A DNA stretch of 64,000 bases from Liolophura sinensis (lineage: Eukaryota > Mollusca > Polyplacophora > Chitonida > Chitonidae): the NCBI RefSeq assembly GCF_032854445.1, contig NC_088295.1:59315249-59379248 (forward strand), in the 5' to 3' direction. The first letter of the stretch is position 1; each line of letters starts with the position of its first letter. Shown here in pieces: positions 10,547 to 63,612 of this stretch. The translations under genes and the position numbers were made by a program. Below the pieces are notes generated by a model. The model worked only from the letters and a program-made list of their open reading frames with translations. It was not told where the DNA came from and made no database searches.

Positions 10547-10606
10547 TGTCGATCAGCCAACGCGAAATCTTTCCTTGAGATCTTTGTTTTAGGATGTCGA
10601 TCTTAG

Positions 10607-13668: not shown

Positions 13669-13860
13669 TGTGAAAACAGTATGTGCTAGAGGACCGCCTC
13701 TTTTCGTCTTCACGAATGTCTTGTAACACCTCAACGAGATCTCGCTTTTCAACGTCAATTTTCTTTAAGAAATGATAGCAGGACTGACATGTGAGCACAT
13801 ATAATTATTATCTACCTGACATGCTGTGAATATCTCGTCCTAAAGCGTGATTTCCAACTA

Positions 13861-20270: not shown

Positions 20271-20334
<64 letters not shown>

Positions 20335-22775
20335 CTACCACGAAACATGCATGTTGCGATATAGGATATACTTGAATAATTCTATTGATATACCCATAAT
20401 ATTGCATTAGTGTCTAATGTCTTGCTGCGGCTTTAAGTCGGAAGACTAAAACTTGTCCGTATATAGTGTAATTCATCAGATGTCTCAGTATTATTGATAA
20501 ATTGTTGTATCTAATTAAAAATAGGGTGAGATAAAGGAGCTATACCGGAGATTTTAGCTAAAAAATTCACATTCCATTGCTTAATCAAAACAAGCTCTCT
20601 GTATTTACCAAGAATATTATAAATCATTTCGTTTCATTAAATATCACACTCGCATATGTACTATAATGTTAGTTAGTTTACCAAGATGTTTGGAACTTTA
20701 TTACCGATTTTAAGGGTGACACGTGCACCAACAAGGCTGATATTTTGTGACAGGTAATTATTAGGGCTATTTTAATATAACAGCAAAAATTCGTTTGTGT
20801 TTGCGGTGATCTATATTTTGCCGAAAATGTACAATATAATCTCTTTGATATGGTTGTAGCTCATTTATTTTCAAAATCCTCTACTTTTTTACAGCATACA
20901 TAGGTAAATATTCTTTGATCCGAAATCAACATAACTATACCTGTGATAAGTTTGACCATCTCCTCCCGCTTTGTCAGGAACACTTCATTAAACTGGAACA
21001 GAGGTGATGACAGGCACACTTAAGTTATACAATACATTCTATAACCCCACAAACCAATAGCCATATGTAATATTCTTTCACACAAATTTCCTGTTTGCTT
21101 TCGGCTATCTCACAGCACAATTAAGGAACCCATACCAGATATTTATTTATTAACTGATTTACATGTATTAATTTGTTTGGTGTATCAAAAATTTACACGG
21201 TACAGAAACAATGGTATCGGTGGTAAACGGCCACATTATCTCAGCTATAACAAACGCCGACGAAGGAGCGAGAGCTGGATTCGAACACGCGATCTCATTG
21301 TCGAAAGGCCTGACATCTGTTCGCAGCGTCTGAGCCAGCAAGGTGCGTCACATATTTCTTCACAGAACAGGCCTAGGTCACAAATTATCTGTTCATGTTG
21401 CAGAACTAATATACGTGACATTCCAACATTTCTTCTTCGTTCTTTGCATGTACACATTCCTAGATTTTTTTTTCTACCATTATCATCAGACTAGCATTAT
21501 CATCAGATTAGCATTATCATCAGGTAATTTACTAAACTCCACCTAGAACACTCAAAAAAATTAATCTGTTAATTTTAACAGAAAATCTTATTACTCAGAG
21601 AACAGATTTTCTGTTAAAATTAACATATTAATTCTGTGAGTGTGTATATACCCCTCTGATGTGTTATCTCATGTCAGCGTAGCTCGGTTTATGTAGGTCA
21701 GTTTTACGTACGGATTTTCTGAATGCACGCATACAGGCCTGATAATAGGGCTTATGGTTGTATGTAAATATAGCTTTGGTGAGATCAAATATAGTACGAA
21801 CGAAACGAACGAAAATATGCAGGCTGTTGCATAGATGTAGTACCAACAGCTAGGTTATAGTCTATACTACCGATAACCCACGTGCAACACAGCTATAGCT
21901 GAATTAATATATAAATTCAAAGCGAACCCCAATCTATATAGGTCTAGGTTACCAGTGCTATATATAGGACTATATCGGCTACACACAGCCGCCTTAGTTT
22001 CGATCGTCTAATGAAAGGATTGAAAATACAGTACAGTTACCGGGCCAACTCAATAAACGTACATCTAGTTTATAATTGATCACATATATAGGCCCTGCGC
22101 AAGAACATTTAATTAGAATTGTTAGAAATAAAAAATTTTCCCACCTACTAGTACACAGGACTACATGTATCGAAAAATATGTTTGCGGTATGGGCCCCTG
22201 CACATGCACATTTTTCTTGCTGCCAGTAAGGATGATACCCGATGTTGTTGGAGATCGCGAACTAGTTTAAATGAAGATATCCTACATCAAAATTCACCCC
22301 CACAGCTAACAGGTTTAGGTCGACTTGGCGCTTTTCAGTCTGAGGAAGGATCGCGAATATATAAAGTATATTTAACAAGAATAAGAAGTATATTTCTTCT
22401 TCACATATAGGCCTACAGACATATCACGAACTAATCGTTCTCGTCTTCTGAGACAAGTTGTGTGCTTCAGTACCTCACTTCTCATCCATGGTGGGAAAAC
22501 GAATCAGAAGCAGCAAATAGCTGTTGTTTGAAAATTATGTGAAATTCTCTGCGCCTGCGCAAACTGAAGCGCATAGATCGTACTTGTACAAATCTTGGCA
22601 TAAGCTCTACGCGTTTATGATAGACCCTAGGCTACCTCCCAATTCTTGCTCGCACGTGCATGTTCAATTTTTAACTGTACTTGCTCATTACCTTGATGCC
22701 CGCAGCTGAAAGCATAAATCGGATGATTTCTCCTTTTCCTCTACCGTCAAAATAATGCAGAGTGACTTGCGACAT
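18584..22775 (-). CDS. Glutathione S-transferase (alpha/sigma-like), last exon not found
   Basis: GSTs conjugate glutathione to electrophiles, or serve as eye or stress proteins, in the cytosol. Exons: 22692-22775 (ATG), 20941-20992, 20133-20265, 19175-19306, 18584-18717. Exon 1 gives MSQVTLHYFDGRGKGEIIRF, with the N-terminal Tyr that activates glutathione. Exon 3 holds the glutathione-site motifs NQLPLLDIDG and LVQTGAIVRYIA. Exons 4-5 give the helical domain (ending EKVLPRYLPAFEK, then GYLVGSSLSMA). Phases join exactly between exons 1-2-3-4. Two breaks: exon 4 lacks one base near 19280-19288 and exon 5 lacks one near 18663-18667. About 178 of the usual ~205 residues are present, and no terminal exon is visible. 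It could be a real gene with assembly errors or a decaying copy. Identification as GST is firm; the subclass is not. Confidence 0.8.
20276..20331. repeat. (TA)n microsatellite at a splice acceptor
   Basis: About 28 TA units end roughly ten bases from the acceptor of GST exon 3 (exon edge 20265). It replaces the polypyrimidine tract expected there. Confidence 0.95.
21150..21330 (-). mobile_element. Diverged SINE-like remnant
   Basis: ATTTATTTATTAACTGATTT and TTTGTTTGGTGTATCAAAAA resemble the SINE tail, and GAGAGCTGGATTCGAACACG resembles the reverse complement of a tRNA B box. The middle is not conserved. Confidence 0.45.
21548..21643. mobile_element. 96-bp near-perfect palindromic MITE
   Basis: The left half contains CACTCAAAAAAATTAATCTG then TTAATTTTAACAGAAAATCT. 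The right half mirrors it (AGATTTTCTGTTAAAATTAA .. CTGTGAGTGT). Only a short loop separates them. Confidence 0.85.
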
Positions 22776-38657: not shown

Positions 38658-41600
38658 TCAATCAGCAAACCACTTCATTCCAGTCTTTTTGGATGACGCC
38701 AAAATTTTGTTACGATACTTGGTAACCATGGCATCAAAGTCATCTGTCTTCTCCCTTCGATTTGCCTTGTATTTCTTCTTCTTCGGCTCCTGAGGAAGAT
38801 TAAGAAAGTTAGATTTATTCTTCTGCATGAGCAGGTATTTCTTATTAGATTTATAATGATGAAGACCACAACCCAATAGATGCAAATGTTTTAGCATTGC
38901 ATTAAAGGGTTCACAAATCACAACTGTTAAATGCTGACTGTAAATGTTTGGTGTTCAAACTAATACTACAGAAATGAAAAAAAGTTTGGGGAAAACATGT
39001 ATTTGTTATTAAATTATCTTGAAAAATTTACAATGCCTGTTCACTGATTTTGTCAGCTCTTGAGATTTTTCAGAAGTGACATTGGAGGCAAATTTCTGGC
39101 CACTATAGCAGCAATCCAGGTGCAGCATCCATACACATACGTGTATGTATTCCAATTCTTCAACCTTTTCACATGTTTGCAATGGTGTTTAAATTCAAGC
39201 ATGTTCTGAAGGCATTATTCCATGCAGACTGACAAAATAACACTTTTTGTGATATTGGCAAAACCAACCAATGTACTTTTGTCTCCAAAATCAAATTAAA
39301 AATGCAGATAAATTGCACTTAAAGTGTCTCTTACAAATGTGAAAAGGTTGAGGAATTAGGGTGCATGTAGTCTTCCATTTGTTGGCACGCAACTCACTAA
39401 CACTTTGGGCTGACGACGGAGACCTGATACAGCCTTACTTTTAACGCCGGTTTTACCCCTAATATGAAGACTGAAAAGCTTATTTCTACCCATACATGTT
39501 AGAACATATCACAAAGTTAACACAGAGTTCATGGGTCTTTTAAAGAGGCTATACCTGAGATTTTGGGCCAAAATACATATTTGATAATAAAATCATATTC
39601 ATACCTGTATTATTTATGGTGTTAAAATTATTATAATTTAACAATTATTATAATTATAAAGTTTGAAAAAGTAACAGCTGGCTTTATAAAATTCAGGAAT
39701 TTTATCATCAATTTGGAACAGTAACACGTGTACAGCCATGACCAATATTTCAGGAGAGGAAATTATTTGGACTATTCTAAAATAACACTGATACCCCTAA
39801 GAGAATCAAAGACTATGTCAGGGGTACTACTTACCATACCCTCCACAGATGATTTCCTCTTCTGGCCACTCTGGCCTCTGGCTTCCTTTCTACTCGGTCG
39901 GTTTTTGTTTGCCTTTTTCCCTGGTTGTTTCCCTTGATCCCTCTGCCGTATCTTTGGTCCAGAGTGAGAAGGCAACACCTTAGGTCTCTTCGCTCCTTTT
40001 GTCACAGTGCTTTTCCCCTTGACCAACCCAGATGCATCAGTCTGTTTCGCTACCGTATTTTCTGATTTACCTTTCTTCTCAGTTGTCCTTCCTTGTTTTG
40101 AATCGCTCTTTTGTTTCGACAATGGGTTTTTTGCTAACGCTTCTCGTTTAGCCTAAATTTTTTAAAAAGTGGTGAAATTATACAGCAAGTTACAATGTGA
40201 AATTGCTATCCAACTTCCACAAACACCAAAGTCACACAAGTTATTTCACAATGTATTTATCTTCAGAATTTGTAAACCATATATATAACCATATATTTGT
40301 CATAAAAAAGTAAGGGGAGATTTACTTGCACAACATTCGCTGACAACTTGCAGTTTCATTACATTTGAGATTTCATTTGATTTAGTTGATGTTGAACATC
40401 ATATTCAAGAACTTTTCACTCTCGATCAGATGGCAATCAGTTTGTATGGGAATCAGAGGTCTAACAGCAAGATTAACAATTTTGTCCATTAGGCATCAAA
40501 TACAGTCCATCAAGACATTTGTGTACATCATCACGGAAAAACTGATATAAGGTGGACTTGAACCTGTGACTGCAGGAACAATTATGAGATAAAGTTCATT
40601 TCGCAGCTCTCTACTACACACATTAATCCAACCACAATTCTTCCTACCTTGATTCTCTCCCACCGTTTCCTCTTGGCCTCTAGGGCTGTCTTATTCTCCA
40701 GGGAGAACTCTACTACTGGTCTCTGTTAAAACGAAAGAAGCAAACACTAATTTCCATATATTAACACTGACTCTTCCTGTACATGTACATTTAACCTCAC
40801 AAAAGATGGTGTACATCCATAAGGCTGGTGACTTAAAATGAAAGAGGAATTCTATAAATCGTTATAAAACCATTCAATACTGAATGAATATGATTCATTT
40901 TACGTACTGTAATTCTTTACCTTTTTGCAATTTTGCAAGGTGTTTATTCAAAAATATTCTGAAAGCATCATTCTGTGCAAACTGATAAAATTGACCTTTT
41001 TTTGTGAAACCTTGAAAGAGACCAACCCAACGAATGTAGTTTTGTTTCTAAAATCATTTTAAAATTGTGCATAAAGCATACAGATCATATGTGAACAGGT
41101 TGGGGAAGTCAGGTAATTACCTGATTAGTATCTAGTACCTTGCTTAAGAACTTTTTGGTGACCAGGCAATCAATTTATTGGTGATAAAATTTGAGTGCCC
41201 AGGGAAACCCACCAACCTTTGCCAGGTATCTTAAGACTCAGACTTAAGGCCACAGCCAAATAAGCATGAGTGAAGGGCCTGATAGATGCAGTGAAGCAGA
41301 ACTTTAACTATCCAAGCCAAAAAGAACCCTAATGAATTTGAAGAAATTAGATGTACCCAAATTCTCCAACCTTTTCAACCACCACTGTGACCAGTATTGT
41401 CTGAGGAAACCGTAAAGTGTAAAGAAATAATCTGCATAGTTTGATGAAACTTGCGTTTTTATTGACACAAACAAAACATTTTGCAGTCATTTTCATTATA
41501 GCTGTATCAATAAATTCCACTGAAAAAAGGGCTTTGGTCGTTGAATATGTTGACGATTTACAGAAGACCTACTACGCATTAAACGAAAGTATGAAAAGAT

Positions 41601-44600
41601 GTACGAAATGTGATTGTGAATGACACTCACCTTTTTTTCCCCAAATATCTCTGGGTTGTTGTTGGTCTTCCTGAGTGCCTCCAGGGCGTGATGATGCTCT
41701 GTGAACTCCACAAACCCATATCCGCGAGACTTGCCCTCTCCCTTGGCATTCACCTGGGTCATGTCCTTCATGATACGACACTGGGGTTAACAAGAAGACA
41801 TGCTAACAGTTGTAGACAAAATATACCACGTGGTATTAAAGACAGTACACAAAACAGAGATACACATTCACATTTGCAGATGTGGTCCTTAATATGTTTA
41901 ACAATTACAGTGTCGACACCTCAATGACAGTAAATTCAAAGTCTATTGTCGGGGGTACAGGTGTAGCTTTAACATAACACTGTGAATCCATTTATTGAAC
42001 ATATTTTAGGATATGGTATGTAGGCTTTGAAATCCTGTCCAAACAGGAAAGAATATAGTTATCAAATAAAGATTTCTGAAAGGTGGCTAAGACTGTATCA
42101 GTGGTGTATGGGTGTCTTCCATACAAGACAAGCTAACCTTTTATTCCATGGAGGTAAAATTAACCTTTATAGATTTCATATCCCTCATTCATCTTCAAAA
42201 CCACATTTTTCTCCATTGAATTTAAAATGAGATTTTGAAAATGAATAAGAAGACATTCCAGTAGTGTTTTATTATTCCATATTTGGCTGACACTTACCTC
42301 AGTAACTTGAGCCTTCCTGTCACCGGCAGCTTGTTGGAAAATCTTCTTCAGTTCCTTATCCGTGGTTTTCACGGGAATGTTTCGTATACACAGCCTTGTG
42401 GTTGAAATAAAAATGTTGGGGTTTTTTCAACTTCTGCCTTTTAACATTTTCTACCTGAAATATAAATTCAAGACAAGGCTAATTTAAAAAACAATGCCTT
42501 GAATTCCAACCTGAAAGCTGAACTTTCTCAATCCAATTCACTCTGACATTTGCTACAGATGATATCGTTTTGGTTAAATTGTAATGGAGAGTGAAATAAA
42601 ACCGCATGAAAATCTCATTCACTTCTGTAATGATGAGTGATTACAGGCATACTGAATAATTTGTGACTTATACAATACTGGTCAGGCTTAAGGATGGGGG
42701 ATACCAGTGCTTTGGTAAACGGAAGCCATTTAACCATGTTTATTACAAACCTCATTGATTACTTCTTTATTTGATTTTTGTTTATGCCAAACTCAAGAAA
42801 TTTCCACTCACATGTACGTGATGGCGAGGAAGAACCGAAGTGCCTGGAGTAAACTGGCTGACCTACAGACAAACTTTCCCACCCTGTTTGTACCACCCTG
42901 TTTGCACAAATAGCCACACAAGTATCGGTGACCATTTTGCTGTTGCCAAGGTGCCCTAAGCAGCCAGAGCTTGGAATCTACAAATTCCCAAAGGCCTGTT
43001 GTATGTCTTCTTTCTCACCACTAAGTTTTCCTATCCCCTCCACCCCAACCCCCTTCTAAATAAAGTGAAGGGCTTCAGAAGACATGCAGAGTACCTTTAA
43101 TCTCATGTCCAGATCAGCCTTTTGATAAGCCTTCAGCAGCTAGTGTGCCTGGTCGAATTACTGGGAACAGAAATGTAACCAATAAGTCACTGATTTTTGA
43201 CCGATGAAATGGCGGGGTTTGATTGATGACCGATGAAAGAAAAAGGCAACTAATTAGATGAGGAATCCATGTAACATAGCTATCAAATTTGAGAAAATTT
43301 CTCACAAAATAGCCTAGTCCAATTGCTCCTTTATCTGAAAATTGCCAAACTAACTACCTCATAATAATGAAGAAAACTACTTTTATGACTGACATTTATG
43401 GTATCTCAAACGATAATAATGACAGGACATTTCATAACAGGCTTTTCAGGATTTTAGTCTTATCATAACAATGTATGCATGAACTTATACACGAAAGTAG
43501 CAAATTAGTCACCTGCATAGAAGCATAACATACACATGAATGTAGCCTTCTGAAAAATTACGCAACTAAATTGAGAAGATACAGCCTCGGACTTACAGCC
43601 TTCTCTGGCCAAGTACAAATTCCTCTTGTCGTCTTTCTCCTTGGTCTGATTCTCCTGTTTCAATCTGGCGGCATCTTGTCTGGACACGGCTAAGATGACA
43701 TTCAGCTTCCTGCCGTCCAGTACAATACCTCCTCGCTGTAGAAATAAGAAGGTGAGTTGAAAATAATTGTAACCACCAAAAACAAAGCGTGATCCGTTCA
43801 AATGTGATCTCATTACGCACCCTTATTCTTCAACCTTTTCAACTGCTTCTGCGACCTATATTTTGAAACTTTCTGGGAGAACTGTGGGGTGTAGAGAAAT
43901 AATTTGCAGTTTTATGAAGCTTGTAAATTAAGTGGCACAAACAAATTATTTTTAGCGTCATTTTCATAATAACTCTATGAATAAATTCCACCAAAAAAGT
44001 GATTTAGTGGTTGAAAACGTTGAAGATTTACAGTATCATTCACAGAGCTACTAAATGTGTTCTTTATGACACACTTAAGAAAATTTGCATAATAGAATGT
44101 ATACATGTATATTTATTTATTTGATTGCTGCTTTATATAATACTCATTAATTTTTCACTTTTTTGATATTAGTCAGTTTTAGAGGTGAAGGAAACCGGAG
44201 TGTCTGGCCTAAACTACAGACTTATGGCAAGCTGATGACAAACCGTCACACGTGTGACATACAGATATACACAACACTATACTGGTGGAAGGCAAGTGAT
44301 CTGCCATGAATGTTAGACTGTGCGAAGGGTTACACCAGTATCCCTGTTTTATTGTCACGAAGACTGTGCGAAGGGTTACACCAGCATCCCTGCTTACTGT
44401 CACCAAGACTGTGCGAAGGGTTACAGCAGCATCCCTGCTTACTGTCACCAAGACTGTGCGAAGGGTTACACCAGCATCCCTGCTTGTTGTCACCAAGACT
44501 GTGTGAAGGGCTACACCAGCATCCCTGCTTATTGTCACCATGACTGTACAAAGGGTTACACCAGCATCTCTGCTTGTTGTCACCAAGACAGCGTGAAGGG

Positions 44601-47600
44601 TTACACCAGCATCCCTGCTTATTGTCACCAAGATTGTGTGAAGGGTTACACCAGCATACCAGCTTATTGTCACCATGACTGTACAAAGGGTTACACCAGC
44701 ATCCCTGCTTACTGTCACCAAGACAGCGTGAAGGGTTACACCAGCATCCCTGCCTATTGTCACCAAGATTGTGTGAAGGGTTACACCAGCATCCCTGCTT
44801 ATTGTCACCAAGACTGTGTGAAGGGTTACACCAGCATCCCTGCTTGTTGTCACCAAGACCATGCTTAGGGTTACACCAGCATCCCTGCCTATTGTCACCA
44901 AGACCATGCTTAGGGTTACACCAGCATCCCTGCTTGTTGTCACCAAGACCATGCTTAGGGTTACACCAGCATCCCTGCTTACTGTCACCAAGACCATGCT
45001 TAGGGTTACACCAGCATCCCTGCCTATTGTCACCAAGACCATGCTTAGGGTTACACCAGCATCCCTGCCTATTGTCACCAAGACCATGCTTAGGGTTACA
45101 CCAGCATCCCTGCCTATTGTCACCAAGACCATGCTTAGGGTTACACCAGCATCCCTGCCTATTGTCACCAAGACCATGCTTAGGGTTACACCAGCATCCC
45201 TGCTTACTGTCACCAAGACCATGCTTAGGGTTACACCAGCATCCCTGCTTACTGTCACCAAGACCATGATTAGGGTTACACCAGCATCCCTGCCTATTGT
45301 CACCAAGACCATGCTTAGGGTTACACCAGCATCCCTGCCTATTGTCACCAAGACCATGCTTAGGGTTACACCAGCATCCCTGCTTACTGTCACCAAGACC
45401 ATGCTTAGGGTTACACCAGCATCCCTGCTTACTGTCACCAAGACCATGCTTAGGGTTACACCAGCATCCCTGCCTATTGTCACCAAGACCATGCTTAGGG
45501 TTACACCAGCATCCCTGCCTATTGTCACCAAGACCATGCTTAGGGTTACACCAGCATCCCTGCTTACTGTCACCAAGACCATGCTTAGGGTTACACCAGC
45601 ATCCCTGCTTACTGTCACCAAGACCATGATTAGGGTTACACCAGCATCCCTGCTTGTTGTCACCAAGACCATGCTTAGGGTTACACCAGCATCCCTGCTT
45701 ACTGTCACCAAGACCATGATTAGGGTTACACCAGCATCCCTGCTTACTGTCACCAAGACCATGATTAGGGTTACACCAGCATCCCTGCTTACTGTCACCA
45801 AGACCATGATTAGGGTTACACCAGCATCCCTGCTTGTTGTCACCAAGACCATGCTTAGGGTTACACCAGCATCCCTGCTTACTGTCACCAAGACCATGCT
45901 TAGGGTTACACCAGCATCCCTGCTTACTGTCACCAAGACCATGCTTAGGGTTACACCAGCATCCCTGCCTGTTGTCACCAAGACCATGCTTAGGGTTACA
46001 CCAGCATCCCTGCTTGTTGTCACCAAGACCATGCTTAGGGTTACACCAGCATCCCTGCTTACTGTCACCAAGACCATGCTTAGGGTTACACCAGCATCCC
46101 TGCTTACTGTCACCAAGACCATGATTAGGGTTACACCAGCATCCCTGCTTACTGTCACCAAGACCATGATTAGGGTTACACCAGCATCCCTGCTTACTGT
46201 CACCAAGACCATGCTTAGGGTTACACCAGCATCCCTGCTTACTGTCACCAAGACCATGCTTAGGGTTACACTCCCTTTAACTCCCTTTCCAAGGCCAGAT
46301 ATTACAGGATGTAAAGTCTGGTTTGTTTTTACACATCAAGATAATGCATTTAATGCCGTTTTTACAAATACATACAATATTAGCTTTCATAAGATGTTAT
46401 TATCAGAGATGCAAAAGAAATAGGGAAGATTGTCTCAGAAAGCCTGGCAACTTAAATAGTCACCCTGACACAGATGGACAAAAGTAAACCCCATACCGCT
46501 GACTCATCATTAGCCTTCTGTAAACACTCCTGGGCACTTTCTTCTGTGGCAAATTGTACAAAAGCCGTTCCTAAAAGGAAATTACACGTTTTAATAGAAA
46601 ATCAGAACTTATGTCTGTAAATTTTATGCACTTGTAGAACGTAAGTGACAAGGGATACATGCATTCACCAACTGAAAAAAAAAAAGCCCTGGGATCTTTT
46701 CCTGGTAACTTTAAAAGATATCATAAAATCCCTTCCTACAATGAAGCATTCTGAGGAAATCAACAAACAATCTGATTGATTTGATTGGTGTTTGACACCA
46801 ATGGTGTTTTTACTCAACAGTATTTCACTTATAAGACCATGGTCAGCATTAGTTTTGCAAAGAAACCTGGGGAAGCCCGTAACTGATAATGTTTTTTTTG
46901 TTTAACTTATATGTATAAAATTTCTCACGAGTTACTTCGCATATATCTGCTTAGGCATGCTGCTGAACACTAACATAACATTTAAGGTTTGTTTGACTCA
47001 AAGAAAAAGAGAATCACAACAATACTTCTTTACCTTTTGGTTTTTCTGTGAAGTGATTCATCACAAATTTACAGTAATCAATCTCTCCAAACTCCTCCAA
47101 CAGTTCTTCCAGTTCTTCCTCAACAGAGTCAAAGTTAATATTCCTAAAAAAAAGAAAATGGAGTCATTTTTCACAAAATGGAAAACACATTTACTTATTC
47201 AGACTTGTATTTGTAATCCAGAGTAGTGTAAAAGATTTTTTCCCTTTCTCGTGGTGACATTAATCAAAAGATAATCCACAAAATAACACTTCAGAATTCA
47301 CCATGTTATGACATCAGTAACCAATAGAAAATTAAGAAATCTACCTTATAAACAACGTCCTGCCCTCTTTCAATTCATTTGGTTTTTGCTTCTTTATCTG
47401 GTTTTCTACAACCAAAAAACAGACGGAATAATGAGAATATAGCACTAGCTCATATAAATAAGGATAATTTATACAAATAATGATTACCATCAAAGTAGAT
47501 TTCCACATGTTTGTCTGACCATAATGCTGGCCGCCGTTGTAAAAATGAAATATTCTTGAGTACAGCATAGCACACCAATCAAATAAACAAACAAATATTT

Positions 47601-50600
47601 CCAAGTGCTATGAACACAACATTGCAAATTCCTACAGCAAACACTGATCAAATATCAACATCAAAAAAACTTAACCATTGTTAACCTTGTTCTGTCCCAT
47701 TCTGTTGTAAAATTTTGTTGAAAATTATCAAGTGCATTTTAATAGAGACCTTTACTTTTTTTCTTCTTATGAAGACTATCGTCGCTCTCAGATTCGCTTT
47801 GGTCATCGGACTCATCATCTGCATCGGATTCACTGTCATCCTCCTTTTCTTCCTCGCTCTCCTCTGAATCCTCTTTGCTGCTAAACCCTTCATCCTCCTC
47901 TGTAAAGAGGAAAATGTCAGCATAAGAGAACATCACATCACAGAGCAAACAATCGCTCCAAATGTAACAAAGCAGTGTTCGTAGAAATATGATATTGTTT
48001 CCAAGCAAAAATTATGTCACAAAGAACTGAATTTTCCATGTTTCTTTTTAGAAAACAAGCTAACTTCAGCATATTTCACATGGCTTCAAGATGATGTTGA
48101 AAATGAAAACAGTTTTTAATGCATAATCAATACATTTAAGAGTTACACATGGCCAAGTAAATGCCCAACTAGCTGACGTCAATATTGCTTTAATTCATAC
48201 TCAAGAATATTTCATAAAAGCATTCATCAAGCAATAGTGGATTCTAACACACATTCTTCCACAAGGCATCTATTACATCACTTCGATTCAGTCAGCTTGG
48301 GTGATTCAATCAGTTTGATACCTCTTTCAAACACAGACAAATACATTTTGCTGCTGTTTTAGTTTCTACAAATATAGTCACCTAAAAAAAGGTCTATACT
48401 TTTACCCACACTATTGTTATTGTCATTTCGGTTCTCAAGTTAAATGATATTTTAAAAAAAAATTTTCTTCATCAAAATTATCTTTTTAAGACCTTCATGT
48501 GCTTCTGAAAACTGCATTTGTACACACTGAACTTAAGGTGAAATACAATACTTACCAGACAGGTCATCGCTTTCATCTCCTTCCTTCTGTTTATTCTCTC
48601 TAGCCTGATCCTCTTCTTCCTCTTCCTCGCTGGAGGATTCCTCACCAGCCACCCCACTGACAGCACCTTCATCAGGACTAGATACTGAGTCTAACAATGA
48701 CAGCAGACTACATTAACCCACATTCTGCCGTTTAATAAATTTCTTCTGGCTAAACGTTTTGTCATTTCATTCATACATGCAATATTATGTTCTTAACAGG
48801 TTTTCAGACTGAACTTCTCTTTGTGTTACACATGTGTTTCAGGTTTAACACATTTTGTCTGGCTATTCACTTTTTCACGCTTACATTTTGTCCTCATTTT
48901 TTCACGCTTACATTTTCTCTTTCTAATAATTTTACCTGGCCTTTTTCAAAGCTTAAATAACATTTTGACTGCTAGTGTGTGCTACACATTTTCAGAATAT
49001 ATACTTTATATTCATGTAATTTTTCTGATTTTATCCTGACTTAATTCACATAATGTTTGTTTGTTACTTTTCATGTATATTTACCCGTCTTAGTAGTTTT
49101 TGCTGTTGCTTTCATAAATTCTCCTTTAGGCACTGCCCAATCTACTGCCACAGGCCGCCCTGAAACCAAGTGTATACAACATACATAAAGTTGTGTAAGT
49201 AACATTCATACTGTCATGCAATGTCCTTTTAATTATTTGATTTATTTATTTTATCTGATTGGTGCATTAGGCTGTACTCAAGAATATTTCACTAATACCA
49301 CGGCAGCCAGCATTATGGTGGGGGGAAACCCGGCTGAGCCCCAGGAAAATCCACAACTTTTAATTATTCAATTATTTGATGATTTATTTTTAAAGGGCAT
49401 AAAACCCTACTAACATGTATGTCCAGTACTAAAAAAAATGTCAAATCTTGTGTAAGCCAGCCGCTCAGTTGGGTGAAACAAAACACAGTCTCTTTTGCTT
49501 TCACTTTACAAAGAATGCATGAAATTTATGTCAAATTCTTTACAACAAGTTTTCATCAGTCTGGTTTACAGGGAGAGGAAAACTGAGTGTCCTGGGTAAA
49601 CTCCTTCACCAGGTATCTGACAAACATAATGTAATAGTGATGCATACATGTATCAACAAAAACTAAATTTGTGCGCTGAACCTTCATATTGGTCGAGAAG
49701 CTGACTGGCAACACAGAGAACAATGCTTTAGCCCAGTGAGCCAATGAGAGCCAATGAAAAGTTTAGAAAATATTAAAACACACTCTGGCAGACTTACCTT
49801 TTATTTGTTTCATATTCATCGTCTTCAGTGCTTTTTCTGCTGATTTCAGGTCGTTGTACTGGACAAAGCCAAACCCATGCTGTTTGCCATCTACAAATCA
49901 AGGACACTGGCTGGATAAGAAGAGCTCAAATACTATGCGGGATATTCAGAAAGAGCAAATTTTTCTTAATTTATTTATTTGATTGGTGTCTTACGCCGTA
50001 CTCAAGAATATTTCACTTCTACGACAGCGGCCAGCATTACGGTGGTGGGAAACTGGGCAGAGCCCGGGGGAAACCCACGACCATCTGCAGGTTGCAGACA
50101 GATTTTTTTTATTAATGTTTTTACAATGTGAGTAAGAATACTAAATTTTCCCTTTAAAACTGTCCTCGCAAAGTGCATGTTTAGAGGAAAGTAAAGGTCA
50201 TATAAATATAACTATTTGTGCTGAAACTTATATTTTTGGAGTAAAATATCCAGCTACCTTTTGAATAAATCTTAAATTAAACACCTTAAATGTCTAGGAT
50301 GAACTTACCACTCCTCATTGGAATGATCACCTCAGATATTTCACCAAATTCCTGAAAACTGTTTCTTAGGTCTTCCTCTGTACACTGTAACAAGACAAGA
50401 AACACAGTATTTGAATTATTGGAATTCACCCAAACGTTTCCAATTGTCTAAGGTCATCAAATATTACTTTAGCTGATCAAGCAGAATATCATCCTAAATC
50501 CCAAGCAAAACCTTAAAACACCTTTCCAAGCTCAATGGAACCGTTATAATTAGGCAAATTTAGTAAGTTAGTCATGCATAAAATTTTAGGTCAATACCAT

Positions 50601-51144
50601 TTCGGTTATTACATGTAATTCAAAGTTACTGTCTTCATAAACTGATAAACTGCTAAAAAAAAGCTGACCACCACAGCAATACTCAATTCCAAATTCTAAA
50701 ATAGTGTATAAGCTTGTAAAACTGCTATCGTTTGCCGTGATAAAATATGCTCTTTCACACTGAAACCTACTGCATGTTGAGTGGACAAGTTAGAGACTTT
50801 TTATTTTTCTCTGAGCTACAGTGGTTGAATCAAAACTTTACAGAACCAAACGACACATCTCACCTTGAAGGACAAATTGCGTATGATTAATCGACACTGT
50901 TTCTGCAGCTTAAAACTACTCTTCTCTGCAGTGTTTTCACTTTTCACTGGTTCCTTTACAAACTCTGATGAGTGCTGCCAAGCCTGCAGTGTCTGGCCTG
51001 TCAAATATAAACAGAGGGAAATTGGTACACTGTATATGAAAAAAAAAAAGCACTCCTTGAAATAAAGAAAAATTAGTAGAACAGTTATTTCAGTTCAACA
51101 CTGATGATGCTTTCGTATTTTTAATATTAAGTACTAAAATTCTC

Positions 51145-51214
<70 letters not shown>

Positions 51215-54200
51215 TACGCTTTACAAGGATTTTAAGAACCACATTAAGACCTTAACATAGAAGGAACCAAGACAGTCTACAAAGACAGCTCATAAATTTG
51301 TATTTGAAGGGTACTGGGTGCGACTCAGCTGTAATGTTCGATATGAACTGAATTGAAATTTAAGAGTGAACATTCATAAACAACAAGCACCATTTAAAGT
51401 CTTGGTATGACCTGACCCAACTTCAAGCCAGATGCTCCAACCATTAGACCATCGAGGTGGTTCTTCCCTGCGCAAAAGTGTACCACACTTGTTTAATCAG
51501 CGACTAGAGAAAACATCATTGGTTTGAACAATTTCTGGTGACCTTCATCCTGGCGCATCCTACTCTCTAAACAACCAGAAGCGCATTGGAAGAACAAAAG
51601 AATCACTTTGGAATTGTGCGAGAATGGGTATTGCAAAATCGATGAACGCTCACTCGTATCTCCCGAAATGAACTTCCGGAAGTCATTTCAGTGTTAACAC
51701 AGTTTTAAATATACTTTTGCAAAGACAAGAAACCTTACAGACAAGAAACCTTACAGACAAGAACAGCTTGCAGCTGCACTCAACAAAAACCACAACAATC
51801 CCCCACCCCCCCAAAGATAAACACAGAACAGCAACAGAGATAAAAAATACCCACCTCTAAAGTCTCTTCCATTTAACCTTCTCACAGCCCTCTTTGAATC
51901 ACGCACAACATTTGAAGGTCAGGATGACAGTGGTGTCAGAGCGACCTTTGACCGGGTATCTAACTTTGGCAATGTTTTTCACATTTCTGAAGAACAATAA
52001 AACAAAGGCTCAGCAAGCAAGGTATATATTAATTGTTTTCCGTTTATTTTTAAACAACCAAGTACAACGATATACACTAACCAATGAAAAGAAGGTTATT
52101 TATTTCTGGTGAGGAGTGAAAAGATTCACTTACTCCAAGACGATTTGATAAATGGGTTGAGGAAATACGGGCGTTCATCACGTACCGCACACCATTACAC
52201 ACTTATTTGCAGCCTCATTCAAGCCTATAACCTCATTTCTAAGTGTTTAATTACTACTGTGGCCTAACAAATCAGGGGGTTTTTTTTCAGGTTCAAAGGT
52301 TCACGGATAAATTTAATGACAGGTAAATACTACACTCATTGTCTGTCAGAAAACAACATCATCAGTGTTTGCAAACTTCATTACCTTCACAGTTCATCAT
52401 TAATTTTCTGCATTTCATCCAATGTTTGGTATGTTAAAATGCACTTTCAGAGGCACATTAAAGGCTTAAAAATTACACTTTTCATGCCAACACTGATGGT
52501 TTTCTGATACAGAAATTAATCAAACGTCAGAAAACAGAACTCCTAAGTGGTCCTATCAGGTGGATGAGTCACTCAAAAGCAAGCAAAAGGTCACGTAAAA
52601 TATACTAAGCTTTAGGTGAACCCCCTTACATGTACACCCCCCTCCCCCCCCCCCCCCCCCCCCCCCAACACCTACTGTGTAGCTTGCTCCAGGGTGGTTG
52701 AGTCCAGCTTGCCTGAGAAGCCAGTCACAACCACTTGTTTAGCTCGCATGTACTTGGTACTCTGAGCATCAGCGTTAGCATTTTCAGGTATTTCCTTTGG
52801 TTTAGACTTCAAAGAGACATCTGGTTAAATAGAAAATGAAAACTTAAAAGTAAAACTACAAATCAAAATTAAGCGGTAAATAATATTTATTTCATGGTCA
52901 TATGTAGGCAAATTTTAAGCATGGGATAAAATGAATAAATGTACAAATTCAAGGTTACTCAGGTTGAAATATTTAACTGTTTAAAATGTGTTTAACTATT
53001 AACTGTCCACCATTAACAAGTCATTGATTAAGACTACTTTCAGCTGTCAAAGTATTTTCTTTTTTTTTATAGAAAATGTAACATGAGGGAGAGAAATGGC
53101 ACACCCTTCCTAGTTTCACATGACAATAAGTTCTCATAAGAAGGTAAATTTAATTACCCTAAACGACCTAAAATTTTGCCCAGAAAAGTGCAAATAAATG
53201 TCAAAAAGTATTATTTTTGGTGCTGAAATTTCAAATTTTCCAGTAGAATATCATCCTATGTTCCAGGCAAACCTCAAAACACCTTTCTAACATCAACAGA
53301 ACTCTCAGAATCAGGACAAACGGGCAAGTTGGTCATAGACGGGATTTATGTTAATTTAGGGTATATTAAAAACTTTCACATAGCACTAGATTATTTACCG
53401 GTTAAGTACCACTTACTGGAATCTTTCTGACTAACATTCTCTACATCATCCTCATCTTCATCTGTCTTCTTTGGGGCTTTTCCTCTTGTATTTCTTTTTC
53501 TTTGAATAAAGGACAAAAACATTCCTTCCATCCACCTTCTTGATTTTACTTTTGGCTTCCACAGCATCCTCGCTGAAAACGTCAAGTTAATACGATGGAT
53601 AGTTTGTGTAGCACATTTTTTTTAATTCATAGTTACTGATTAAATTTATTTACTTATCTGCCTTGGTGTTTTACTCACCAAGATCAACAATATTTCACTT
53701 ATATGGTATGGTGGGAGAAAAACCAGGCAGACTGCAGGGGAAACCCACAGCCATTCGCAGGTTGCAATGATTATATAGTTTGGCTCAAATCACAAATAAT
53801 AAGAACAAAACAGGATTTTATTTCTAATGAGGGGAGATACAATTTGTTTGGTGAGCACAAAAAATGTGTGCAAAGCAGTCAAATTCACCTTATCCAGAAA
53901 GGAAAATTTCAAATAAAGTTAACTGGTGATAAACTAGAGTGGGTTCTTTATTTGAGCATTTTAATATTTATTTCTTTGATTGTTGTTTCGTGCCATGTAC
54001 ACAAGAAGTTTTGACTTATATAAGGGCTGTTAATTTAATGGGTGGAGAAAAGTGGAGTGCCCAGGGTAAACCACAGGCCTTTCGTAAATTACAGATACAT
54101 TTTCACAAATTCTAACACTATATTTGTGGTCTCCAATAAACCTTAAACTGTGCAAACAGCCAGTTGATGAGTGTTGCAGACTGCTTTTTTTTCACCTAAA

Positions 54201-55984
54201 AAAACAGTAACGGCCAAACTTAAGTTGAGAAGCCACGGTAAATGAATGAGTACAGAACATAAAGATGAATAAGGAAAACATGAGATTTAACCTAATATAT
54301 TTAAAATAAAGATTATATTGTACGTTGTCAGGAGTATTTTCAGTAAGGTTTTAGGATGTTATTAATTAGACACACCTGTAATTTTTATGTCATGCATGTA
54401 CCTAAAAAGTATATTAGTTGTTTTGAGAGAAAGAAATTACATTTCTGTGATGTTTTTGGAAAAGCAAGGAAGTGTACATGTTGTTCATCAGATGAGCTAA
54501 CAAGGTGAGAAAAAAACAAATTAAAAGTTTTGCAATTTTGCGAATTTTTGAAAATCTTGTCTGTTCTTTTCAGTATTCCTGTTTCCAAAAAATAACCTGT
54601 ATATTAGTTAAAAATTAAAACCCAGACCAGATGTTCCAAAAATATTAAAAGAATAGAATGCTATACTACACTTTTCTGTCGTGCTTGTGAATCCTGTATT
54701 GGAATAACATTAAATACTTACAGCATTGAGTACACAACAAAGCCATAACCTTTTCCTCGTCCAGTCTCTGAAAATATAATATTAAAACACTAACATTAAA
54801 CATATTATACCATGAAGATACATGTACTGCATCACACATATTTTTATGACGGTATTCACCAAACAGTTATGTTATACAAATTGTGGTACAGAATTGTCAA
54901 AAATTGTCTAAAGTTAATATTGTAATGTAGATAAAAGTCCATGTGATTTTTAACAAACAGTTCAGCTGGGTGATAAATTCTATGAAACTATATGTACATT
55001 TCAGACAGATTTTCCTAATTTAGTAGCAAGTGAAACATCTTCCCAAGTGTCTTCTGATTGTTTATAATATCCCAGATATTAACAAATTATGAATGTCAGC
55101 CCAAATTTTGTCAACAGCCAGTTTCAGATATGACAAATGACTTTATTCCATTATGGTTAAGTAGTTAAATTCACTAGTATGATGGTGGTCAGTTTTATGA
55201 GATAGTAAAACTGGGGTTAAATTACTGAGCTCTGTACATGTGTAGTAATTCTAAGCTGTTGATGAACTTTATCACAGGGCATACAGAGCTGTACAGGCCA
55301 CACTCCTGGTGAACAAGAGCACATGTCTTCAGCACATGTTAGACTGCACAACTGCACTGCTCTTGGGTGCGTTTTGGGTGTCAAATATTGCAAATTATGA
55401 CATTCTGCTAGTGTAGTTTTTCTTTGCTTTGTGAAAAAGATAGGTAAGTATTTAGCCGTACTGTTATAAATTATACTGACAGGGAGCTGAGATATTGCAG
55501 TTTCTCATTAAGGACTGTCACACCTCATACAAAGATGCCATGGCTATGAAATGTTACAATTAGGCTTTTTTTTGAGTGGAAGAAGTGAGAGATCATGACA
55601 GAACCCTGTAAGAGGGGCATTCAAAAGCCTCGCCAGACAAAAACCGTGGAGGACAAAAGCCCTTCAATCACAATACTAGAAGCAAGCAGCCTATATGATC
55701 AATGAAATATGTAGACGCTTCAGATTCCAATCATAGCTCCATTTACATCATAGCTCCACGTCGTCAAGTAAGGCGACATTTGCAACAACAACAGCGGCAT
55801 AATAAAGAAAGAAACAAAGCGTTGCTGGGTGCCACATACCTTTATCCTTAACAAGAATACACCGTTTGACGGGCCCTATCTCACTGAAAACTTCCTCCAG
55901 CCTCTGTTCCGTCACACTAAACGGTAAATTTCGAATGAATAAGGTTTGACGCGGCTCAGCATGGTCATCACTGCGCGCAGCCAT
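38658..55984 (-). CDS. RBM28: RNA-binding protein 28 (RBM28/Nop4 family)
   Basis: RBM28 is a nucleolar RNA-binding protein linked to snRNPs and 60S ribosome biogenesis. Exons: 55840-55984 (ATG), 54722-54767, 53417-53572, 52676-52820, 51855-51986, 50864-50997, 50309-50384, 49798-49890, 49085-49159, 48556-48690, 47750-47899, 47345-47405, 47034-47143, 46497-46570, 43597-43735, 43095-43160, 42298-42454, 41631-41780, 40648-40722, 39835-40152, 38658-38789. Domains (about 854 residues): RRM1 ~14-95 ([11 protein letters not shown]), an extra RRM-like segment ~141-215, RRM2 ~243-325 ([18 protein letters not shown]), acidic Ser/Glu/Asp tract ~335-430, RRM3 ~440-530 ([19 protein letters not shown]), RRM4 ~595-690 ([25 protein letters not shown]), basic tail with LPSHSGPKI and C-terminal MKWFAD. 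Human RBM28 has 759 residues and four RRMs. Four single-base excesses interrupt the frame in exons 3, 5, 16 and 17. The exon 11 donor (GTCTCT) is weak. Identity is certain; integrity is not. Confidence 0.93.
39159..39362. mobile_element. MITE, family A, in an RBM28 intron
   Basis: Ends are CTTCAACCTTTTCACATG and CAAATGTGAAAAGGTTGAGG. Body as in the copy at 32214. Confidence 0.85.
40904..41118. mobile_element. MITE, family A, in an RBM28 intron
   Basis: Diverged ends (TTTACCTTTTTGCAATTTTG, CATATGTGAACAGGTTGGGG) flank the conserved body (GTAGTTTTGTTTCTAAAATC). Confidence 0.75.
41365..41573. mobile_element. MITE, family B, in an RBM28 intron
   Basis: Starts CCAACCTTTTCAACCACCAC and ends GTCGTTGAATATGTTGACGA. 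The body (GTCATTTTCATTATAGCTGT) matches the copy at 43825. Ends resemble family A but the bodies differ. Confidence 0.7.
42765..42995 (-). mobile_element. SINE-like repeat, diverged family, in an RBM28 intron
   Basis: TTTATTTGATTTTTGTTTATGCC and ACTCAAGAAATTTCCACTCA-type sequence, then AGAACCGAAGTGCCTGGAGT. The core GGAAACCGGAGTGCCCAGGG-like motif is shared with copies near 24050, 44110, 54040 and 56920. Confidence 0.6.
43825..44038. mobile_element. MITE, family B, in an RBM28 intron
   Basis: Starts TTCTTCAACCTTTTCAACTG and ends GTTGAAAACGTTGAAGATTT, so the termini are complementary. The body matches the copy at 41365. Confidence 0.75.
44108..44225 (-). mobile_element. SINE-like repeat, diverged family, in an RBM28 intron
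   Basis: TTTATTTATTTGATTGCTGC at the left, then AATTTTTCACTT and GGAAACCGGAGTGTCTGGCC. It abuts the 45-bp minisatellite. Confidence 0.6.
44315..46273. repeat. 45-bp minisatellite, ~43 copies, in RBM28 intron 14
   Basis: The unit runs GGGTTACACCAGCATCCCTG then CTTACTGTCACCAAGACCAT and GCTTA. About twelve copies at the left have GACTGTGTGAA or similar where the remaining copies have GACCATGCTTA, so two sub-families are arranged side by side. In the right-hand copies each junction reads CTTAGGGTTACA, that is one and a half TTAGGG units. Because 45 is divisible by three, several frames stay open (682 codons on the minus strand, 520 on the plus); these are repeat artefacts. Exons 14 (46497-46570) and 15 (43597-43735) flank it. 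Confidence 0.95.
46774..46880 (-). mobile_element. Diverged SINE fragment, RBM28 intron
   Basis: TTGATTTGATTGGTGTTTGA, AGTATTTCACTTATAAGACC and GAAACCTGGGGAAGCCCGTA follow the SINE order. Confidence 0.6.
47519..47597 (+). mobile_element. SINE 3' part, RBM28 intron
   Basis: CATAATGCTGGCCGCCGTTG, then TTCTTGAGTACAGCATAGCA and a CAAATAAACAAACAAAT tail. The tRNA head is absent. Confidence 0.8.
49231..49352 (-). mobile_element. SINE fragment, RBM28 intron
   Basis: TTATCTGATTGGTGCATTAG, CAAGAATATTTCACTAATAC and GGCTGAGCCCCAGGAAAATC. Tail and core only. Confidence 0.8.
49969..50099 (-). mobile_element. SINE fragment, RBM28 intron
   Basis: TTTGATTGGTGTCTTACGCC, then GGCAGAGCCCGGGGGAAACC and CACGACCATCTGCAGGTTGC. 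High similarity to the copies at 57391 and 58487 suggests a young insertion. Confidence 0.85.
51149..51207. repeat. (TA)n microsatellite, RBM28 intron
   Basis: About 29 TA units, then CATATATACG. Confidence 0.95.
52644..52666. repeat. Run of 23 C (G on the RBM28 sense strand)
   Basis: A run of 23 cytosines, preceded by CCCCCCT, begins about ten bases past the donor of RBM28 exon 4 (exon edge 52676). Such runs are prone to length error and can form G-quadruplex in RNA. Confidence 0.9.
53639..53767 (-). mobile_element. SINE fragment, RBM28 intron
   Basis: TTTATTTACTTATCTGCCTT, CAATATTTCACTTATATGG and GGGGAAACCCACAGCCATTC. The core has lost the GACGGCGGCCAGCAT segment. Confidence 0.75.
53965..54110 (-). 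mobile_element. SINE-like repeat, diverged family, RBM28 intron
   Basis: TATTTCTTTGATTGTTGTTT, GTGGAGAAAAGTGGAGTGCC and CAGGGTAAACCACAGGCCTT match the family at 42765. Confidence 0.6.
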
Positions 55985-59607: not shown

Positions 59608-62600
59608 TTATGACAGCCCAGTGTGAAGTTTCAGAAGGCGCTTGATTCGTCGGATGAGAGCTTCTGTGAAGCCGTACTCTGTTCGTGACTTGCCAAAGCA
59701 CTACAAAACAAACACAAAAAATGAAATTATACTGGTTCACAATAAAGCTTTTGCACACGTTTTCAATCTCTTTTGTCAAGAATATACAAACAATAATTTT
59801 TCATTCATTCATTTATCATTCAAAATTTTTACCTCTGCATCAACTGACAACAGCACTCCTCAAAAAAAAGTGGAGCAAAACTTGGTCACTTTCATCAAAA
59901 ATATTTACTAGAATCAATTACAAGTATATTAAAATTACTATCTTCTTTCTAAGAAATTAACGTGAACTTAAGCTACATATATGCAATATTCATACATCTA
60001 TTTTAACAGCTAACACTTTGTTTTCTTAAAATACCTGATCAATTTTCTGCAGTTTTTCAAACAGGGTTTCATTGATGGCTGACACAGCCTCCATCTTGAG
60101 CTGATCGATATCTTCCTGAGTTACCCCCCTTGTACCTTCCTCCAGTTCAGGGTCAACATCAGCTTCTCTCATGGACTGTGAGCTCAGACTTGAGATATCT
60201 GCAATACAGATTAATTGACTGATTATTGTTTCTCAATGTCATACTCAAGAATTTCACCTGTATAAGTTGGGTAAACCACAGACCTTTGGCAAGTTACTTA
60301 CAAATTTTCTTGTGGGTAAGGTGAAGACTTGCATGCCATATTGGTGGAAAATCACAGTCCAAGGCCGGCATTGAACCAGTGCAGTAAAGTGTCGCGCACT
60401 TTACCCAATGAGCTAAATTGTGTTTCAGCATATAACTGATCACTCATGAAGTGTTTAAGCAGCACAATGGGTTTTCATCTATATGTACTGTTAGTCATCA
60501 AACTTTTCACATATTTGAAAGGTGTTTATTCAAGCGTATTCTGAAAGCATTATTTTGTACAGACTGACAAAATTATACTTTTTGTGAAGCCCTGAAATGG
60601 CAATCCAATTAATGTAGTTTTGTCCCAAAAATCAAATTAAAAATGTGCATAAATTGGCTCTGAATGTTGTCCTTTCATATGTAAAAAGTTTGAGGGATTA
60701 GGGTATGTATGCTTGGGGTGTTAAGTCGTACTTGATAAGTTTTCAGTCATATAACAAGGAGTTGATAGGTGTGTGAACATATACTGAGTCTACTTGTGGC
60801 AGGGCGAGTCCATGCTGCCAAAACTGGGTTTTCGTGTATACCTTGTAACCTGCGAAGTTGCCGGTTCCTCTTTACATGCACCTGGTATAGGGACGGCTGT
60901 TTGTCCATGGGGACACAATGTAACAGGTAGAACTCCAGGTGTCGCCAGAGCACAAACAAACAGTTCTCTATGATGTCTGAGAGCAAGTGGTCAAGGAAAT
61001 ACTTGAAACGACAAACTCAATTTAGAATTTTAGCCCTTATTTTGTGAGACTACAAATTCAAATTTCTTACAGTATATTAAAAACAATGGTCACTTAAGAA
61101 ATTGGAAAGGAGAGGTACATGTGCTATGTCCATATCTATCAAAACATCTTAAGATTCAAGTCAAAAATTCAAACACAGCTATTATTAAAATGTTTTGCCC
61201 TGGGAAGTTTAAAATTTATACACTGACTCCTTACTGCAGAAAAAATGTATCACCCAGAATTTGAGTTCTGTCATGTTCTGAGTTTGGCCTTTAAGGCATT
61301 TGCAATTTAAGACTTTGAGTCTTATTATACAGTTGCTAAGTAAATACGAACCTTGATCTTATATGGTAATTAAAACCAGTAAGTATAGGCTCACAACCAC
61401 ATAGACAAAGGATACATGAATAATGTCGGAGCTCTTTAACCTTGTGACCCACAATCTGTATCAGCCTCTTTCTGGCGATCTGTTGTCGTTGTTGCGTGGA
61501 CAGCTTCTCTGATGTTCCTGCGTCTAGAAACTGCAATAGAGAAATCACAGAAAATACAAGCTTCTAATTCCACTATTACTGAATAGGACTGTACATAACA
61601 GAATGTGTTGATTAAAACCATATGAAGAGCAAGGTAGCCTGTGATGCAAGAGCCTCCTGTACAAGTAAACTAATTGACTAATTTATTTGATTTGTTTGGT
61701 CAAGTGTTCGGAGTAAAAACTAATGTGTTGGTGGGAACAAACCAAGGGGGAAACCCACAACCATCCGTAGGTTACTGGCAAACTTTCCCATGTACGGCCA
61801 GAGAGAAAGCCAGCACAGGCTGGGCTTGGAAAAATACTTTGAATGCATACGAATACATACATGTTTGAGATCCTCGTTAGTGAGGTCAGCTAACGACTGG
61901 AGTTTCCTCAGATGCTCCTGGTGGTTGTCATACACAGACATGAATTGGTTTGTACAGCGACGCAGATGGAACACCACTAAACCTAGGTTAGGAGTCTGGA
62001 TTGGACTCAGAGTAGAGCTCTGGTAATCTGCCAGAAAAACACCAAGAAAAATACTTATTTGTTTGACTTATTGAACATCAATTGTTACTTATACAACATG
62101 TTAATGGGCTGAAAAATAAACCGCTATCTTTTACCAAAACTACTTGGTAAACTTCCTTAGTTAAAGCTATCTTTGAAGCACGGTTAGCCAGAGCTGGATT
62201 TGAGCCCATAACCTCAGTGGTAGTAGAATGACTGGCTGTGGCTGGACCAACACTTATGTCACATAAGCCAGTGAAGGCCTCTTAGCAAACAAATTTATGT
62301 ATTTCATAGTCAGAAAATGGGGAGTCTCTGCTTTGTGTTACAGGCATTGTAATTCATGTTGAAGAATATAGTCGGCTATGTTGATGGTGGAAACCATTCA
62401 GTAGCTCATCAAGGACAGCAGAAAGAATCCTTCATCAACAGCGAGTTTTATCAAATGTACAGCAATTACATAGAATAAAAAGGCTGAGAAAGCCGTCACA
62501 ACATGCCCCTGGGGTAACGTTCACGACAACATACAGTAAAGACATACATCAGCACAGTTAAGGAACTTATTTGATATGGCATTAGGACAACTTTGTCAGA

Positions 62601-63612
62601 CAGGATCCAGAAAGGACCACAACAATACTGCAAATGTTTTAGCGCTGCTCTGATGTGTGGTTAAAACGTTTGTTAATTCAAGAAATAAATACTTACAATC
62701 CACATTTTTTACAGTTTTTACATATAAAAATCACTTATACTTTATTAAACTGGAGCTCACCTTCAAATGTCCTCAAATCCCTTGCTAAAGCTTCTTCCAA
62801 ACTGGGTCCAAACAAAATTCTGCAATACTTAGCACTGTTTCCTGAATGGTGAAAACAGTGTGATTTCCTCAGAATGTGTGAAATTCTAAAGTTTGAGAAA
62901 GGGCGAAAACCTCAACAAAATACAATTCAGTGATGAAATATTGCTTGGAAGTCTATGACATATCATCTCAATTACATTTAATTACCATAAAAAAAATTGA
63001 TCAAAAGCATCTTATTAGCTAGTAAAATTCAGGCTTTACATTTTGCTCAGATTGTGTCATTTACATGACAAAGAGTGAAAAAGGGACATAAAGAAATCAA
63101 CAGATTTGATTCTAAACACTGTGAACCATAACGCCAATTAATTTGTAAATCATTTATACAAAAGACACTACCTTAAATTTTCAAATTCTAATGAAACAAT
63201 TCAGATTTTTCTCAGCGAAGTACCTTTACTTGGTAATTTTATGTACAGGGTTTAATCAAGCTTCCCGTATCCATTTACCAAAAGTTTCATCATTATGTGG
63301 CCCTAGGCAGATTATCCCATCCGCTCCACTGCAGGATTTAATTCGTAACTTTACCTGATGATGAGATGAGCGACCTGCAGAAGGACATGACATTCGCCGT
63401 GATTTCCTGCACACACAGCATGATCTCAGTTTTCTTGTCTTCCTCCTCCTGTCTCTGCCCCCTAGTCCGCACCCCCTCCAGCTGCTTAATCATCCTTTCT
63501 GACAAACAGTACTTGGGCAGCAGGGCCAACATCTGCCGCTGGATCCGGGCTACGTGGCCTTTGTACTCCAGAGCAGCAGCTTCTGACTGGAAGTATTCAT
63601 TCTCTATGTCAC
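59608..63612 (-). CDS. Unidentified helical charged protein, C-terminal part; 5' end beyond the window
   Basis: Exons: 63355-63612, 62761-62841, 61861-62027, 61416-61530, 60035-60198, 59608-59700 (TAA stop at 59608-59610). All six join in phase with no frame error, giving about 292 residues. I cannot name the protein. It looks almost wholly alpha-helical and charged: LEGVRTRGQRQEEEDKKTEI, YCRILFGPSLEEALARDLRT, NQFMSVYDNHQEHLRKLQSL, STQQRQQIARKRLIQIVGHK, ending IRRIKRLLKLHTGLS. No zinc, kinase or membrane motif is visible. A scaffold or coiled-coil subunit, for example of a centrosomal or spindle complex, would fit the composition, but this is a guess. For exon 61416 the donor at ATTCAT|GTATCC was chosen over an earlier CACAAG|GTTAAA because only the former enters the next exon in an open frame. 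The gene continues right of 63612. Confidence 0.65.
60499..60706. mobile_element. MITE, family A
   Basis: Ends CATCAAACTTTTCACATATT and CATATGTAAAAAGTTTGAGG with the conserved family body. In an intron of the gene at 59608-63612. Confidence 0.8.
60707..60880 (-). mobile_element. Fragment of the second tRNA-SINE family
   Basis: TGCTTGGGGTGTTAAGTCGT and AGTTTTCAGTCATATAACAA match the left end of the element at 30752. The tRNA-like end is not recognisable. It abuts the MITE at 60499. Confidence 0.6.
61674..61836 (-). mobile_element. Diverged SINE, in an intron of the partial gene
   Basis: ATTTATTTGATTTGTTTGGT, AGGGGGAAACCCACAACCAT and AAAGCCAGCACAGGCTGGGC. The central GACGGCGG segment is lost. 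Confidence 0.7.

What the first reader, a model, noticed from the sequence alone, without database searches (positions are those of the whole stretch)
42298..53572. Four single-base frame breaks in RBM28, all one base too many in or beside an A run
Exon 3 (stop at 53458-53460; shift within 53461-53510), exon 5 (stop at 51899-51901; near 51902-51914), exon 16 (stop at 43114-43116; near 43117-43124) and exon 17 (near 42421-42428) each switch frame once. In every case dropping one A from a coding-strand run of three to six restores both the family match and the phase for the next exon. The other 17 exons are clean. The uniform sign and context point to systematic homopolymer over-calling, but a decaying gene copy is not excluded.
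Basis: partly seen in the sequence, partly recalled or inferred. Interest (0 to 1): 0.7.

Follow-up and report, generated by a model that had tools for sequence, protein, structure and literature searches.

The report
Likely assembly errors in RBM28 gene
An otherwise intact animal gene for a ribosome-assembly protein appears broken in four places, most likely because the genome assembly miscounts bases there, so this is an ordinary data error and not a biological discovery.

Summary
The four frame breaks are really in the sequence. A 21-exon RBM28/Nop4 gene runs on the minus strand from 55984 to 38658. All 20 introns are GT-AG, and 17 of 21 exons are clean. Exons 3, 5, 16 and 17 each change frame once, all in the same class (+1 modulo 3). 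Read through, the gene gives 852 residues with no other stop. Its best solved match is Nop4, E = 7.6e-55.

The most likely cause is residual insertion/deletion error in the assembly. Simulated neutral decay rarely gives four same-class shifts with no nonsense or splice-site loss (0.26-2.7%). No alternative splice site rescues exon 16.

Having an A run at all four sites has roughly a 12% chance in this A-rich sequence. The surplus base need not be an A. Against Nop4, exon 17 scores better as two bases short than as one too many (160 versus 144). The neighbouring NUP205 end has 0 breaks in 1013 coding bases, which neither confirms nor excludes error. No reads and no whole genome are held, so a young pseudogene stays possible (about 7%).

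The parts
38658..55984 (-). RBM28/Nop4 gene, 21 exons, ATG at 55984-55982, stop ending at 38658
   Evidence: all 20 introns GT-AG, phases consistent apart from four exons; 852 residues when read through; best match Nop4 (9qjc_B) 7.6e-55, RBM28 RRM3 (1x4h) 8.1e-26
53417..53572 (-). Exon 3, frame break somewhere in about 53503-53461 (lysine-rich linker after RRM1)
   Evidence: frames; upstream-frame stop at 53460; 111 of 156 single-base removals open the exon
51855..51986 (-). Exon 5, frame break in about 51917-51902, inside a weak extra RRM-like domain
   Evidence: stop at 51901; RRM_1 23.1 bits only across the break
43095..43160 (-). Exon 16, frame break in about 43131-43117
   Evidence: stop at 43116, no GT donor before it, three AG sites after the break, none in phase (phase worked out by hand); Nop4 alignment continues across
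42298..42454 (-). Exon 17, frame break in about 42435-42413, just before RRM4
   Evidence: Nop4 alignment score 83 or less without and 132-160 with a frame change
59608..63612 (-). Last 7 exons of NUP205 upstream of RBM28, used as a control: no frame break in 1013 coding bases
   Evidence: (Nup205 5ijn_D, 1.8e-45)

Best explanation
The gene is an ordinary, functional RBM28/Nop4 ribosome-assembly gene of an animal, and the four frame breaks are residual insertion/deletion errors in the genome assembly. Shown: the gene anatomy is intact and each break is a single change of the same frame class. Inferred: that the DNA of the animal does not carry the breaks. The error type that fits best is a long-read consensus with surplus bases in short runs.
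For: All 20 introns GT-AG, start codon, stop codon and 17 of 21 exons intact. No other stop in 852 codons. Domains match Nop4 and RBM28. All four shifts are of one frame class; neutral decay simulated with 3, 6 or 10 substitutions per indel gives no nonsense or splice hit plus 4 of 4 same-class shifts in 0.26-2.7% of runs (the indel model is my assumption). Alternative splicing cannot restore exon 16. [quoted passage not shown] in Nanopore reads poly-A and poly-T lead too, without the insertion excess (PMC7671305, passages). Indel errors in thousands of genes of a long-read human assembly are mentioned in PMC12007338, citing Watson and Warr (passages). The gene is hard to lose: yeast Nop4 is essential and human RBM28 complements it (PMC4859800, passages).
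Against: No reads seen; platform unknown. The NUP205 end in the same window has 0 breaks in 1013 coding bases (P = 0.21 at the RBM28 rate by length, 0.37 by A/T runs), and the 45-base array departs from its period in 1 of 42 spacings over 1946 bases. Both are compatible with error, but neither shows an excess of it. After correction the insertion excess of PacBio reads is often small: of seven corrected columns visible in the passage (headings not seen; taken as PacBio from the raw values), insertions exceed deletions in five, from 0.28 against 0.26% to 1.19 against 0.23% (PMC7671305). Exon 17 scores better as two bases short, which would break the uniform sign.
Confidence: 0.9

Rival explanations
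1. A young unprocessed pseudogene: this is a duplicate RBM28 copy with all introns that recently lost its frame, and an intact copy sits elsewhere in the genome.
For: The window also holds what look like decaying copies of other genes: a truncated RING ORF at 13362-13685 and a GST-like fragment near 18.6-20.4 kb with stops in the readings between its parts. NUP205 next door is unbroken. A second RBM28 could not be looked for because no genome is held.
Against: No nonsense codon and no splice-site loss among 20 introns; all four shifts in one class; joint chance 0.26-2.7% under simulated decay.
Confidence: 0.07
2. Alternative exon borders avoid the breaks, so the transcript is in frame without any error.
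For: In exon 3 a GT after 53550, in exon 5 GTs after 51946, 51910 and 51907, and in exon 17 AG sites at 42354 and further in would keep the phase (candidate lists, phases compared by hand).
Against: They delete the last strand of RRM1, the second half of the extra RRM-like domain, or the first 100 bases of exon 17 with the start of RRM4, although the sequence removed matches the family. Exon 16 has no GT before its stop, and none of its three AG sites after the break gives the right phase (phases by hand).
Confidence: 0.02
3. Programmed +1 ribosomal frameshifting at several sites of one messenger.
For: In three of four breaks (exons 3, 5, 16) the upstream frame ends in TGA, and moving on by one base there re-enters the correct frame (read).
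Against: Exon 17 has no such stop near its break (next upstream-frame stop at 42358). Four sites in one ordinary animal gene would be without precedent that I can recall. Nop4 aligns straight through the exon 16 and 17 sites.
Confidence: 0.005

Closest known systems
RBM28 / Nop4, nucleolar factor of large-subunit assembly
   Same: Order and sequence of four RRMs, the conserved stretch between RRM3 and RRM4, best solved match 9qjc_B Nop4, and RBM28 RRM3 1x4h
   Different: A weak extra RRM-like domain between RRM1 and RRM2; four frame breaks in this assembly
Indel errors in long-read assemblies that break reading frames (Watson and Warr 2019, known here only through PMC12007338, passages)
   Same: Single frame breaks in an otherwise intact gene
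   Different: All four of one class; platform and reads not available here

Membership tests
RBM28/Nop4 | Similarity over most of the length, domains in order | tested here: met
   7.6e-55 to Nop4; three stretches pass the threshold and a weak fourth (15.5 bits) follows in order
RBM28/Nop4 | The four RRMs that human and yeast proteins share (PMC4859800, passages) | tested here: met
   RRM_1 in two stretches of the first part, 60.8 bits for RRM3 and 40.9 bits for RRM4
RBM28/Nop4 | No further RRM | tested here: inconclusive
   a fifth RRM-like domain at 23.1 bits (cut-off 20.7), seen only when exon 5 is read across its break; no solved relative below E = 0.26
RBM28/Nop4 | Nucleolar role in large ribosomal subunit assembly | not testable with these tools
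   needs experiment
Assembly indel error | Frame change absent from reads | not testable with these tools
   no reads held
Assembly indel error | Frame breaks also in other genes of the same assembly | tested here: inconclusive
   0 breaks in 1013 coding bases of NUP205, P(0) = 0.21; other genes of the window were not searched for completely
Pseudogene | Nonsense codons, lost splice sites, mixed indels | tested here: not met
   none among 852 codons and 20 introns; all four shifts of one class
Pseudogene | Intact second copy in the genome | not testable with these tools
   no genome held

The most novel reading that the evidence does not exclude
The frame changes are real, and the messenger is decoded by repeated +1 ribosomal frameshifts (three of them at UGA codons), which would be multi-site recoding in an animal housekeeping gene.
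Probability: 0.005. Interest if true: 0.85.

Novelty: not a real feature. Interest (0 to 1): 0.07.

Why it matters
It warns that gene calls from this assembly may be cut into pieces and that an essential ribosome-assembly gene could be wrongly reported as lost or as a pseudogene. It has no wider biological meaning if the error reading is right.

Tried and rejected
A-run context as strong evidence: rejected, product of chances about 0.12. Alternative exon borders: rejected for exon 16, unlikely for exons 3, 5 and 17. RNA families: no Rfam match at gathering score in the window. Tandem arrays as an error meter: the 45-base array departs in 1 of 42 spacings; a motif in the 18-base array is spaced 18, 36 or 42 in 43 of 47 cases and 16 or 20 in 4 of 47, which I did not interpret; the seven arrays taken hold only 45 A or T runs of 3 or more in 3948 bases, so they say little about such runs. 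NCBIfam: for the first 95 residues of RBM28 nine families, all below their cut-offs, for the NUP205 piece none. A codon-usage scan served only to pick candidate exons; the rest of the window was not searched completely for genes. Literature search for a repeat core from the window, to name the organism: no paper. RBM28 in molluscs: 7,064 papers hold at least two of the four terms; the 8 listed show no occurrence of RBM28; the rest were not seen. Nearness of the breaks to low-complexity tracts (0.7-1.9 kb) was not tested against chance and is not used.

Full report
What is there. The minus strand from 55984 to 38658 carries a 21-exon gene. I set each exon border from the sequence and checked it by script. 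All 20 introns begin with GT and end with AG, the gene starts with ATG and ends with a stop, and the raw coding length is 2563, one more than a multiple of three. Seventeen exons are open in the frame that the neighbours require. Exons 3, 5, 16 and 17 are open in one frame at their start and in another at their end. Each of the four changes is of the same class, +1 modulo 3. Read across the breaks, the gene gives 852 residues without any further stop.

Identity. The best solved match is Nop4 (9qjc_B, E = 7.6e-55; three stretches pass the threshold and a weak fourth of 15.5 bits follows in order). RRM3 of RBM28 itself (1x4h) matches at 8.1e-26. Pfam finds the four expected RRM_1 domains. The gene is therefore taken as RBM28, the ortholog of the yeast protein Nop4. 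Human RBM28 can complement loss of Nop4, which is essential in yeast (PMC4859800, passages seen). That the source is an animal is judged from gene structure and the NUP205 neighbour; the species is not known.

Do the breaks restore a family match? For exon 5, yes: RRM_1 scores 23.1 bits across the break, above its cut-off of 20.7, while the first half alone has no RRM match and the second half alone 12.6 bits. For exons 16 and 17, yes: the alignment score to Nop4 is 52 if the reading stops at the exon 16 stop, 83 or less if exon 17 is not read across, and 132 to 160 with both read across. For exon 3 the break lies in a lysine-rich linker after RRM1, so the family match only limits where the first frame can end.

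Which base, and which sign? The frame alone cannot tell one base too many from two too few. One too many is better in exon 5 (23.1 against 18.9 bits) and in exon 16 (144 against 133). Two too few is better in exon 17 (160 against 144). From memory, vertebrate RBM28 is one residue shorter there than Nop4, which would favour one too many, but I could not test this. Nor is the base fixed: single-base removals that open the exon number 111 of 156, 23 of 132, 28 of 66 and 70 of 157 positions and include all four bases. The coding sequence is A-rich (86 A runs of three or more against 33 T, 20 G and 13 C runs). Intervals of these lengths would touch an A run with chances 0.80, 0.50, 0.48 and 0.61, product about 0.12. 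The A-run context is thus weak evidence.

Error or decay? A gene copy that had lost function would collect nonsense codons and damaged splice sites along with indels of both signs. I simulated neutral change until four frame-breaking indels had occurred, with 3, 6 or 10 substitutions per indel and insertions making 33% or 50% of indels (my assumptions). No nonsense or splice-core hit occurred in 8-39% of runs, and this together with four shifts of the observed class in 0.26-2.7%. Residual assembly error needs no such luck for the intact rest of the gene. Published error spectra fit an insertion excess in raw PacBio reads, with A and T homopolymers over-represented in both PacBio and Nanopore reads; after correction the insertion excess is small or absent in some columns of the table and large in others (PMC7671305, passages). 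The platform used here is unknown.

Controls inside the window. The end of NUP205 lies upstream on the same strand (59608-63612; match to Nup205 5ijn_D at 1.8e-45). I placed seven exons; their phases agree, they end in a stop, and there is no break in 1013 coding bases. At the RBM28 rate 1.6 breaks would be expected, so zero has a chance of 0.21. A 45-base array in intron 14 departs from its period in 1 of 42 spacings. These controls neither prove nor exclude a general error rate.

Alternative splicing. GT sites in exon 3 (after 53550) and exon 5 (after 51946, 51910, 51907) and AG sites well inside exon 17 (42354 and further) could keep phase only by deleting part of a domain. Exon 16 has no GT before its stop, and its three AG sites after the break leave the wrong phase (candidate lists; phases worked out by hand). 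So exon borders cannot explain all breaks.

Verdict. Assembly indel error, 0.9; young pseudogene, 0.07; others small.

Noticed in passing
52820-50950 (exons 4-6, minus strand): RBM28 here has a weak additional RRM-like domain between RRM1 and RRM2 (RRM_1 23.1 bits, cut-off 20.7); Nop4 9qjc_B has only 16 residues between the two aligned stretches, and human and yeast proteins are described with four RRMs (passages). No solved relative below E = 0.26.
   Followed up: partly
44326-46271: A minisatellite of 43 copies of a 45-base unit inside intron 14 of RBM28, 93% matches; because 45 is divisible by three it leaves long open frames (up to 708 codons) that are not genes.
   Followed up: partly
59608-63612: The last seven exons of NUP205 lie upstream of RBM28 on the same strand.
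   Followed up: yes
9995-10552, 13362-13685, 14441-14812: Three RING-type ORFs on the minus strand; two carry nearly complete RING matches, the one at 13362-13685 matches only 27 of 49 profile positions below the cut-off and looks decayed.
   Followed up: partly
18599-20413: A short GST_N match (25 residues, 21.6 bits, cut-off 20.9) with a GST-like stretch further on and stops in the readings between them, perhaps a decayed GST copy; a Pfam search of the second stretch found nothing.
   Followed up: partly
52637-52666 and 51147-51216: A run of 23 C within a 30-base C-rich tract and a 35-copy TA repeat inside introns 4 and 5.
   Followed up: no
window, for example 50016 (-) and 5943 (+): Sixteen places match a 24-base repeat core with up to six substitutions, resembling the tail of a dispersed SINE-like element; I recall such tails from mollusc genomes, which is untested.
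   Followed up: partly
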